58,641 bases of DNA. Source: Halothiobacillus sp. GTDB lineage: Bacteria > Pseudomonadota > Gammaproteobacteria > JAAZVP01. The translations under genes were made by a program, and so were the position numbers. The stretch spans positions 1 to 58,641 of the forward strand of contig JAAZVP010000012.1 of NCBI GenBank assembly GCA_018623495.1. Reading direction: 5' to 3'. Every line of letters begins with the position of its first letter. Within the stretch, counting starts at the first letter, position 1. Under the pieces are notes generated by a model. It worked only from the letters and a program-made list of their open reading frames with translations, ran no database searches and was not told the origin of the DNA. Positions 57,796-58,641 of the stretch are shown here, in pieces.

Positions 57796-57981
57796 ATGCT
57801 GATTCTTACCCGCCGTGTGGGCGAAACACTGATGATCGGGGACGACGTGAGCGTCACCGTGCTGGGCGTCAAGGGCAACCAGGTGCGCGTGGGCATCGAG
57901 GCCCCCAAGGACGTCTCCGTCCACCGCCAGGAAATCTACGAGCGCATCAGGGACGAGGAGGGCAGCTCCGAAGAGGGCTGA
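57796..57981 (+). CDS. csrA: Carbon storage regulator CsrA
   Basis: This 61-residue RNA-binding dimer regulates translation by binding GGA motifs. The start [20 protein letters not shown] and the RNA-contacting [20 protein letters not shown] with Arg44 are intact. AAGGAG precedes ATG 57796. The 208-base gap from lysC likely holds its promoters. A hairpin-rich tRNA-derived array lies just downstream. Confidence 0.97.
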
Positions 57982-57985
57982 TCCC

Positions 57986-58014
57986 TTTACCGGAAGCCCC
58001 GGGAAATGTAGGAT
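57986..58014 (+). promoter_or_regulatory. Possible promoter toward the repeat array
   Basis: TTTACC (57986-57991) and TAGGAT (58009-58014) are 17 bases apart, just after csrA. Each matches four of six consensus bases. It could drive the array and the tRNA-Ser gene expected beyond the window. Confidence 0.3.
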
Positions 58015-58015
58015 A

Positions 58016-58039
58016 CCGTGCCAGTCGTGGCTGGCACGG
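58016..58039 (+). terminator. Hairpin downstream of csrA
   Basis: A perfect 9-bp stem, CCGTGCCAG-TCGTGG-CTGGCACGG, lies 34 bases after csrA. It has no T tract, so termination may be partial and read-through into the array is possible. Confidence 0.5.
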
Positions 58040-58120
58040 CCTGCCGCAAAAGCCGCTCCCTGCATGGCCCACCGGGCTACAGGCGGAGCGCACAAACAAC
58101 GAGCAAGTGCCGCAACAGGT

Positions 58121-58641
58121 GGCCGAGTGGCTGACAGGATCGTCGGGAACGATCCTGGCCGGCCTCCAGGCCGGCCCCGAAGGGGCGAAGGGCAGGAAGC
58201 CCGGAGCAAGGCGCTCCCCTGCACAGGCCGCGAGGCCTGTTGCTTCCAGGGCGCCGGAGAAAGAGCGAGTTTCTGGAGAGATGGCCGAGTGGCTGACAGG
58301 ATCGTCGGGAACGATCCTGGCCGGCCGCCAGGCCGGCCCCGAAGGGGCGGAGGGCAGGAAGCCCGAAGCAAGGCGCTCCCCTGCACAGGCCGCGAGGCCT
58401 GTTGCTTCCAGGGCGCCGGAGAAAGAGCAAGTTTCTGGAGAGATGGCCGAGTGGCTGACAGGATCGTCGGGAACGATCCTGGCCGGCCTCCAGGCCGGCC
58501 CCGAAGGGGCGGAGGGCAGGAAGCCCGGAGCAAGGCGCTCCCCTGCACAGGCCGCGAGGCCTGTTGCTTCCAGGGCGCCGGAGAAAGAGCAAGTTTCTGG
58601 AGAGATGGCCGAGTGGCTGACAGGATCGTCGGGAACGATCC
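58121..58641 (+). repeat. 162-bp tandem array with tRNA-Ser 5' half in each unit
   Basis: Three complete 162-base units start at 58121, 58283 and 58445, and a fourth starts at 58607 and is cut by the window end. They differ at only four positions (58188, 58267, 58327, 58366). Across each junction runs GGAGAGATGGCCGAGTGGCT, the acceptor strand and D-arm of a tRNA-Ser; the first junction is diverged (GGTGGCCGAGTGGCT). About 73 bases later AAGGCGCTCCCCTGC resumes the tRNA into its anticodon loop and then stops. Each unit has hairpins at +14 to +36 (loop CGGGA), +36 to +55, +69 to +81 (loop AGGAA) and +102 to +119 (loop GCGA), relative to the unit start as zero. Weak similarity extends left to about 58099. 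Confidence 0.9.

What the first reader, a model, noticed from the sequence alone, without database searches (positions are those of the whole stretch)
58099..58641. Tandem array built from a split, truncated tRNA-Ser downstream of csrA
The sequence shows an exact 162-base period with over 98% identity between units. Each unit carries the first 22 bases of a tRNA-Ser, a 73-base insertion at the D-loop, then 15 more tRNA bases ending inside the anticodon loop, and 52 unrelated bases. In E. coli csrA is followed by tRNA-Ser(GCU), so a true gene probably lies just right of the window. The nearest known parallel is the tyrT locus of E. coli, where about 178-base repeats carry a tRNA 3' end. Here it is the 5' half, and it is interrupted. 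The near identity suggests recent amplification or gene conversion.
Basis: partly seen in the sequence, partly recalled or inferred. Interest (0 to 1): 0.85.

Follow-up and report, generated by a model that had tools for sequence, protein, structure and literature searches.

The report
Tandem hairpin repeats before tRNA-Ser gene
Between the csrA gene and an intact serine tRNA gene lies a row of near-identical 162-base repeats, each holding the tRNA's front end interrupted by a four-hairpin RNA module that is related to E. coli 'tRNA-linked repeats' and carries loops of the kind the regulator CsrA binds; this front-end, D-loop version appears to be undescribed.

Summary
In detail: a 162-nt tandem array at 58113-58641 (three full units plus a part; 2-9 differences between units), each unit with tRNA-Ser nt 1-22, a 73-nt insert, tRNA nt 23-37 and 52 other bases. 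The insert is the conserved part: a four-hairpin RNA core (99.3% of cells paired, 18 of 22 pairs with compensatory changes in 28 relatives) found in 157 of 369 gammaproteobacterial genomes. The same core lies in the E. coli tyrT rtT repeats and in the rrnB T1-T2 spacer, i.e. the tRNA-linked repeats (TLRs), some of which bind CsrA through GGA loops. Known TLRs carry the 3' end (18-19 bp) of an upstream tRNA/rRNA. Here the core sits in the D-loop, the unit carries the 5' part, and the tRNA lies downstream; 7 of 369 genomes have this type. The array is probably transcribed as the 5' leader of pre-tRNA-Ser and may bind CsrA (inferred). How the core spreads is unknown. New variant of a known kind.

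The parts
57796..57981 (+). csrA (61 aa), gene upstream of the array
   Evidence: PF02599 match G000:C70:57796-57951, E=6.4e-26; relatives
57986..58014 (+). candidate promoter TTTACC-N17-TAGGAT, upstream of the whole array
   Evidence: Similar TTTACC-N17-TATNCT in several other csrA/tRNA-Ser loci (L015, L056, L061, L088; L011 with its second TTTACC). The stricter sigma-70 consensus scan found nothing. Inference only.
58113..58274 (+). unit 1; its tRNA 5' end is eroded in the first bases
58275..58436 (+). unit 2, complete 162 nt: tRNA nt 1-22 (58275-58296), core (58297-58369), tRNA nt 23-37 (58370-58384), 52-nt tail (58385-58436)
58437..58598 (+). unit 3, complete
58599..58641 (+). start of unit 4, cut by the contig end; array resumes at G000:C82:1
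58135..58207 (+). four-hairpin core in unit 1, inserted in the tRNA D-loop after ...GGCTGA
   Evidence: R1 93.9 bits (a seed sequence of the model); structure supported by covariation in relatives
58297..58369 (+). core in unit 2; GGA in loops of hairpin A (TCGGGAA) and hairpin D (GCAGGAAGC)
   Evidence: R1 92.3 bits; fold
58459..58531 (+). core in unit 3
   Evidence: R1 93.4 bits
58621..58641 (+). first 21 nt of the core in unit 4
58370..58431 (+). fifth hairpin of the unit: tRNA nt 23-37 (GGCGCTCCCCTG) pairs with CAGGGCGCC in the tail; an analogous complement of the tRNA piece is seen in G015, G126, G043, G240 and the Ser(GGA) array
   Evidence: MFE fold; sequences

Best explanation
The array is a D-loop ('5'-type') relative of the E. 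coli tRNA-linked repeats. Shown: each unit is a partial copy of the 5' part of the neighbouring tRNA-Ser(GCU), with a conserved ~73-nt four-hairpin module inserted after ...GA in the D-loop, tandemly multiplied between csrA and the intact tRNA gene. Inferred: a module insertion that broke an essential single-copy tRNA could persist only in a duplicated copy, which then shrank to the piece next to the module and multiplied by unequal crossing-over. Inferred: the array is transcribed from a promoter behind csrA as the 5' leader of pre-tRNA-Ser, released when RNase P trims the tRNA, and its GGA-loop hairpins A and D (two per unit) bind CsrA, so that it acts as a weak CsrA sponge whose level follows stable-RNA transcription. 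This is the proposal made for the E. coli TLRs RrA/B/F. Shown in E. coli only: RrB binds CsrA in vitro through such loops. What moves the module is not known.
For: Family: R1, built from 12 cores of 7 genomes, finds the core in 157 of 369 genomes of the class, and in E. coli at tyrT (19.8-24.3 bits) and the rrnB-type T1-T2 spacer (53-54 bits). Independently, Rfam RtT (RF00391) scores units of the same kind at tRNA-Gln and tRNA-Ser of G043 at 34-40 bits, just under its threshold of 45. Structure: 28 cores, 22 pairs, 99.3% of cells paired, 18 pairs with compensatory change, 0 of 500 shuffles as high. Stable-RNA link: in 25 genomes outside the seed set, 14 best hits have a tRNA within about 300 nt, all 14 on the same strand; about 1-2% expected, p < 1e-17. 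Insertion rule: 51 of 54 distinct junctions read NGA before the core. At E. coli tyrT exactly 18 nt remain from the T-loop junction to the tRNA 3' end in all four repeats, which reproduces the '18-19 bp' TLR rule (PMC8144298). The 5' type recurs: junction pattern in 7 of 369 genomes, 0 with the reversed control pattern; an intact tRNA-Ser lies downstream in all but G334, whose contig ends. CsrA: in 28 cores not used for the model, hairpin D's loop is CA(N)GGA(T/A/C)G in all and hairpin A's loop holds GGA in 27, while the stems vary freely. RrB binds CsrA with KD about 100 nM, lost when three GGAs are changed. Relatives are expressed: RtT RNAs in A. pleuropneumoniae by Northern blot, in Thioalkalivibrio by transcriptomics.
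Against: No expression or binding data for this organism. The sigma-70 scan found no promoter, so the leader claim rests on a loose footprint. The total number of GGAs per unit (6) is no more than in shuffles (5.9), so the argument rests only on their place in loops. The cores were found with a model whose seeds carry GGA loops and CGA junctions, so both conservation counts are partly selected for. The E. coli tyrT cores have lost the GGA loops, so CsrA binding is not essential to the kind. 17 of 157 core-bearing genomes have no csrA hit, one of them 100% complete (G013); the association with csrA is not significant (p=0.056). [quoted passage not shown] coli gave only modest, contradictory phenotypes.
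Confidence: 0.68

Rival explanations
1. The core is a selfish non-autonomous mobile element that inserts into stable-RNA genes; the array is passive debris kept by unequal crossing-over, and the GGA loops matter only for mobilisation.
For: Identical cores lie at two different tRNAs in one genome (Pro and Arg in G249) and dispersed in G122 inside ~250-bp repeats. Cores also sit inside other genes: an IS91-like transposase (L141) and the start of a phage terminase gene. A duplicated tRNA-Ser(TGA) carries cores in both its D-loop and T-loop. Genomes with cores have Y1 transposases more often (108/157 vs 100/212, p=3e-5).
Against: 49 of 157 core genomes have no Y1 transposase hit, and genome size and kinship are not controlled. 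No target duplication, no autonomous copy and no transposase regularly next to the core were found. Loops stay fixed while stems vary, which suggests selection on the RNA or single strand, though ssDNA recognition would do the same.
Confidence: 0.45
2. The array is a cis element: a structured leader that slows or tunes expression or maturation of tRNA-Ser(GCU), for example because its extra tRNA 5' ends compete for the tRNA's 3' strand or because its hairpins act as processing or attenuation sites.
For: In the predicted fold of one unit plus tRNA the unit's GGAGAGA pairs with the tRNA's 3' end. The complement of tRNA nt 23-37 in the tail folds the extra tRNA piece away. rtT-like BIME elements have been proposed as attenuators in Enterobacteria.
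Against: Minimum-energy fold of a 254-nt RNA only; RNase P may act before it forms. The same core also stands downstream of tRNAs, where it cannot be a leader.
Confidence: 0.3
3. Assembly artefact: a single unit repeated by the assembler.
For: The array lies at a contig end.
Against: Units carry different single-base changes; contig C82 supplies the other flank; the same layout with one or two units is complete inside a contig in G015, G043, G126, G240 and G345.
Confidence: 0.02
4. Ordinary integration scar: tRNA attachment-site duplications left by a tyrosine integrase.
For: tRNA genes are classic integration sites and part of the tRNA is duplicated.
Against: Attachment sites give a direct repeat at both element ends; here the core splits the target without repeating it (TTCGA|core|ATCC). 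The module has no gene and is 73 nt.
Confidence: 0.03

Closest known systems
tRNA-linked repeats (TLRs) of E. coli: 22 copies at ten loci (Rudd 1999, as described in PMC8144298), including RrA/RrB/RrF in the rrn T1-T2 spacers
   Same: Same four-hairpin core (R1 53-54 bits on the rrnB type), GGA loops in hairpins A and D, partial copy of the neighbouring stable-RNA gene, several copies per locus, core joined after ...GA.
   Different: TLRs carry 18-19 bp of the 3' end of a tRNA/rRNA lying upstream. Here the unit carries the 5' 22 nt plus nt 23-37 of a tRNA lying downstream, with the core in the D-loop.
RtT RNA (Rfam RF00391), E. coli tyrT operon (Bosl and Kersten 1991)
   Same: Homologous core and similar period (178 vs 162 nt); liberated from a tRNA precursor in E. 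coli.
   Different: T-loop insertion, 3' trailer, GGA loops lost; no Rfam RtT match in the window even at E<=5. The stringent-response claim for rtT was later withdrawn (PMC8144298).
AaHKsRNA22 (Rfam RF02902, Aggregatibacter sRNA)
   Same: Its model scores a TLR-like unit at tRNA-Gln of G043 above threshold (45.0 vs 39.8 bits), so it is probably another T-loop member.
   Different: No match in the window.
CsrB/CsrC/RsmY-type CsrA sponges
   Same: Multiple hairpins whose loops read CAGGA(U/A/C)G-like; could work by titrating CsrA.
   Different: No homology, no own GacA-controlled promoter seen, tied to stable-RNA genes; only two loop GGAs per unit.
BIME/REP elements
   Same: Short intergenic hairpin repeats; rtT-like elements were placed among BIMEs by one study (PMC2965389).
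   Different: Specific insertion in tRNA/5S pieces; REP-type transposase presence not required.

Membership tests
tRNA-linked repeats (TLR, as described in PMC8144298) | Lies next to a tRNA or rRNA gene | tested here: met
   Intact tRNA-Ser(GCU) directly after the array, on C82; the join across the contig gap is inferred from the shared array.
[quoted passage not shown]
   The unit carries tRNA nt 1-22 and 23-37, and the tRNA lies downstream. Hence not filed as a TLR in the strict sense.
tRNA-linked repeats (TLR, as described in PMC8144298) | Shared core sequence and hairpins | tested here: met
   R1 finds the E. coli rrnB-type TLR (53-54 bits) and tyrT TLRs (19.8-24.3 bits); four hairpins supported by covariation.
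tRNA-linked repeats (TLR, as described in PMC8144298) | One to five copies per locus | tested here: inconclusive
   Three full units plus parts seen; the assembly breaks inside the array.
tRNA-linked repeats (TLR, as described in PMC8144298) | Transcribed with, and processed from, the stable-RNA precursor | not testable with these tools
   No RNA data; a promoter footprint upstream only.
RtT RNA (RF00391) | Rfam gathering score (45 bits) | tested here: not met
   No RtT match in 57980-58641 at E<=5.
CsrB/RsmY-type CsrA sponge RNA | GGA motifs in hairpin loops | tested here: met
   Loops TCGGGAA and GCAGGAAGC in each unit; loop GGA in 27 of 28 (A) and 28 of 28 (D) relatives.
CsrB/RsmY-type CsrA sponge RNA | Matches an Rfam model of the family | tested here: not met
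   RsmY 11 bits against a threshold of 57, E=3.9.
CsrB/RsmY-type CsrA sponge RNA | Binds CsrA | not testable with these tools
   Shown only for the E. coli relative RrB (PMC8144298).
REP/RAYT system | Y1 (RAYT-like) transposase present in genomes with the element | tested here: inconclusive
   Odds ratio 2.5, p=3e-5, but 49 of 157 core genomes have no hit.

The most novel reading that the evidence does not exclude
The tRNA-linked-repeat core is a mobile RNA-coding module, spread through the Gammaproteobacteria and beyond, with a fixed insertion rule (after GA in T-, D- and anticodon loops of tRNAs and in the 5S 3' end). By landing in stable-RNA genes it repeatedly creates growth-coupled CsrA-binding RNAs. 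The window's array, placed between csrA and tRNA-Ser, would be a multi-unit CsrA sponge next to its target gene.
Probability: 0.3. Interest if true: 0.85.

Novelty: new variant of a known kind. Interest (0 to 1): 0.64.

Why it matters
It joins scattered facts into one family: the rtT repeats of tyrT, the RrA/B/F RNAs between the rrn terminators (copied into many expression vectors), Pasteurellaceae RtT RNAs and this array. A single insertion rule explains why E. coli TLRs share exactly 18-19 bp with their tRNA: that is the distance from the T-loop junction to the 3' end. The rule also allows 5'-type (D-loop) and anticodon-loop types, which are found here. If the loops bind CsrA, many genomes carry growth-coupled CsrA-binding RNAs that are not annotated, and their number per locus can change by simple recombination. 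It also raises a testable question: what moves a 73-nt module without genes into tRNA loops?

Tried and rejected
Rfam at thresholds and at E<=5 on the array: nothing credible. IS110 bridge RNA: one core lies beside an IS110-family ORF (L157) but on the other strand, and others have no such gene; dropped. REP/RAYT mobilisation: weak association only. 'The core always sits in a hairpin loop': left/right flank complementarity was slight at tRNA loci (p=0.013) and absent elsewhere (p=0.70), so the rule is not supported outside tRNAs. Non-tRNA sites near 5S or other known RNAs: none in 14 loci apart from one tRNA-Phe. Core in viral contigs: an exact pattern found none; in phage records 4 weak matches. 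Association with csrA presence: p=0.056, inconclusive. Sigma-70 promoter scan: none. Total GGA count per unit: not above shuffles. Whole genome as file: not available. Literature: four early searches gave nothing useful; the key paper came with rrnB and T1/T2 terms.

Full report
What is there. The window is the whole of contig C70 of a 2.46-Mb gammaproteobacterial genome in 110 contigs. From 58113 to the contig end at 58641 lies a tandem array of period 162. A full unit is tRNA-Ser nt 1-22 (GGAGAGATGGCCGAGTGGCTGA), a 73-nt insert, tRNA nt 23-37 (AAGGCGCTCCCCTGC) and a 52-nt tail. Units 2 and 3 differ at 2 positions, unit 1 from them at 9 and 7, mostly in its eroded first bases. Contig C82 begins inside the same unit and leads into an intact tRNA-Ser(GCU) at C82:107-198. 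The order is csrA - array - tRNA-Ser, inferred across one assembly gap.

A second array in the same genome. Contigs C60 and C45 end in a diverged array whose units carry the 5' end of tRNA-Ser(GGA) (GGAGAGGTGTCCGAGCGGTCGA) and a related insert; it ends at an intact tRNA-Ser(GGA). The tRNA part follows the neighbouring tRNA while the insert is conserved, so the insert is the element and the tRNA part is its target.

The insert is a conserved structure. Twelve inserts from seven genomes gave a covariance model, R1. In a sequence-only alignment of 28 cores, none of them used to build the model, the four hairpins A-D have 99.3% of cells paired (80% in shuffles) and 18 of 22 pairs with compensatory changes, 0 of 500 shuffles as high; sliding the partners by one column drops pairing to 43%. 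The loops stay fixed while the stems change: hairpin A's loop holds GGA in 27 of 28, and hairpin D's loop reads CA(N)GGA(T/A/C)G in all 28. A caveat: most of these cores were found with a model seeded by such loops.

Distribution. R1 finds the core at E<=1e-3 in 157 of 369 genomes of the class and, at E<=1e-4, in 70 of 299 of the phylum, outside the class mostly in one family. In 25 genomes outside the seed set the best hit has a tRNA within about 300 nt in 14 cases, always on the same strand (p below 1e-17 even at 2% expectation).

Insertion rule. 51 of 54 distinct junctions read NGA before the core. Targets seen: T-loop (TTCGA|ATCC) of Gln, Pro, Arg and Ser tRNAs; D-loop of Ser(GCU), Ser(GGA) and Ser(TGA); anticodon loop of Ser(CGA) (L164) and Ser(TGA) (L150). 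One duplicated tRNA-Ser(TGA) carries two cores, in D-loop and T-loop, and one full-length Ser(GGA) copy carries a core in its T-loop, next to the intact gene. Insertion thus goes with a spare copy of the target, as expected if a broken essential tRNA cannot survive alone (inference). T-loop types lie mostly downstream of the tRNA with its 3' end; D-loop types lie upstream with its 5' end. In most of both kinds a complement of the tRNA piece beyond the core is also present, so that the spare piece can fold away.

Link to the known. The E. coli tyrT repeats (rtT/rttR) have the same layout, and R1 finds three of them; Rfam's RtT model in turn scores the G043 units at 34-40 bits, just under threshold. 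Exactly 18 nt lie between the T-loop junction and the tRNA 3' end at tyrT, which reproduces the '18-19 bp' rule of the tRNA-linked repeats (PMC8144298). A BLAST search with a consensus core also hit the T1-T2 spacer of E. coli rRNA operons, where the core splits a duplicated 5S 3' end (R1 53-54 bits). These are the RrA/B/F RNAs, shown to bind Hfq and CsrA, the latter with KD about 100 nM and dependent on GGA motifs. The GGA loops had been noted here from the alignments before that paper was found.

The 5' type. The D-loop junction pattern occurs in 7 of 369 genomes and its reversed control in none. Apart from G334, where the contig ends, an intact tRNA-Ser lies just downstream. Named examples at csrA/tRNA-Ser are an uncultured Ectothiorhodospiraceae bacterium (L011) and two gammaproteobacterial MAGs (L084, L046). 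I found no description of this type in the papers searched, a limited library.

How it may work. A TTTACC-N17-TAnnnT box behind csrA recurs in some other csrA/tRNA-Ser loci, upstream of any array; the strict consensus scan does not see it. If it is the tRNA promoter, the array is the 5' leader of pre-tRNA-Ser, cut off by RNase P. Each unit then offers two GGA-loop hairpins. In E. coli the analogous RNAs bind CsrA but have modest and puzzling phenotypes. The total GGA content of the unit is not above chance, the tyrT cores have lost the motif, and 17 of 157 core-bearing genomes lack a csrA hit. I hold family identity as near certain (0.9), transcription as leader as likely (0.6), CsrA binding as somewhat likely (0.55), and a physiological sponge role as open (0.3).

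What moves it. Unknown. Genomes with cores more often hold Y1 transposases, but a third have none. A simple 'hairpin loop target' rule failed outside tRNAs.

Verdict. Observation confirmed; interpretation partly right. Because one defining TLR feature (the 3' end of an upstream RNA) is not met, the array is filed as a new 5'-type variant that shares the TLR core and probably works like a TLR, not as a TLR in the strict sense.

Noticed in passing
E. coli rrn T1-T2 spacer (L171, L175, L176; plasmid pAK51 L170): The familiar vector sequence between the rrnB terminators (GACAAATCCGCCGGGAGCGGATTTGAACG...) is a full core splitting a duplicated 5S 3' end; 3971 of 5426 E. coli genomes have a blastn match to the core.
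   Followed up: partly
G000 contigs C60:62300-62549 and C45:8391-8516: Second, diverged 5'-type array in the same genome, before tRNA-Ser(GGA).
   Followed up: yes
G000:C31:1789-1866 (L120): T-loop-type core downstream of tRNA-Gln in the same genome, so one genome holds both types.
   Followed up: partly
G136:C1:3570600-3571034; G125:C1:1407152-1407429; G000 C9:125-262, C50:70097-70234, C64:50283-50420, C67:691-828: R1 hits at steps of about 68-72 nt: tandem arrays of the core alone, apparently without tRNA pieces. G136 has 53 cores in all.
   Followed up: no
L154-L156 (G122), L159 (G264): Cores inside ~250-bp dispersed repeats with terminal inverted repeats TAGCCYGSATATTGCACC, MITE-like.
   Followed up: partly
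L122, L123 (G000 C63, C105) and L121: Another dispersed family in this genome with a core inside, starting near GAACCTCTGCACGAATCGATAG.
   Followed up: no
L141:1066-1147: Core apparently inserted in an IS91-like transposase reading frame.
   Followed up: no
L174 (phage PhiKM PQ738613): Core overlaps the start of the terminase large subunit gene and is read as protein.
   Followed up: no
G000:C82:107-198 with the last unit: The unit's spare tRNA 5' end is predicted to pair with the 3' strand of the intact tRNA-Ser; possible misfolding cost.
   Followed up: no
L109 (G043:C30): Rfam AaHKsRNA22 scores a T-loop unit above threshold, so this Aggregatibacter sRNA is probably another member of the family.
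   Followed up: no
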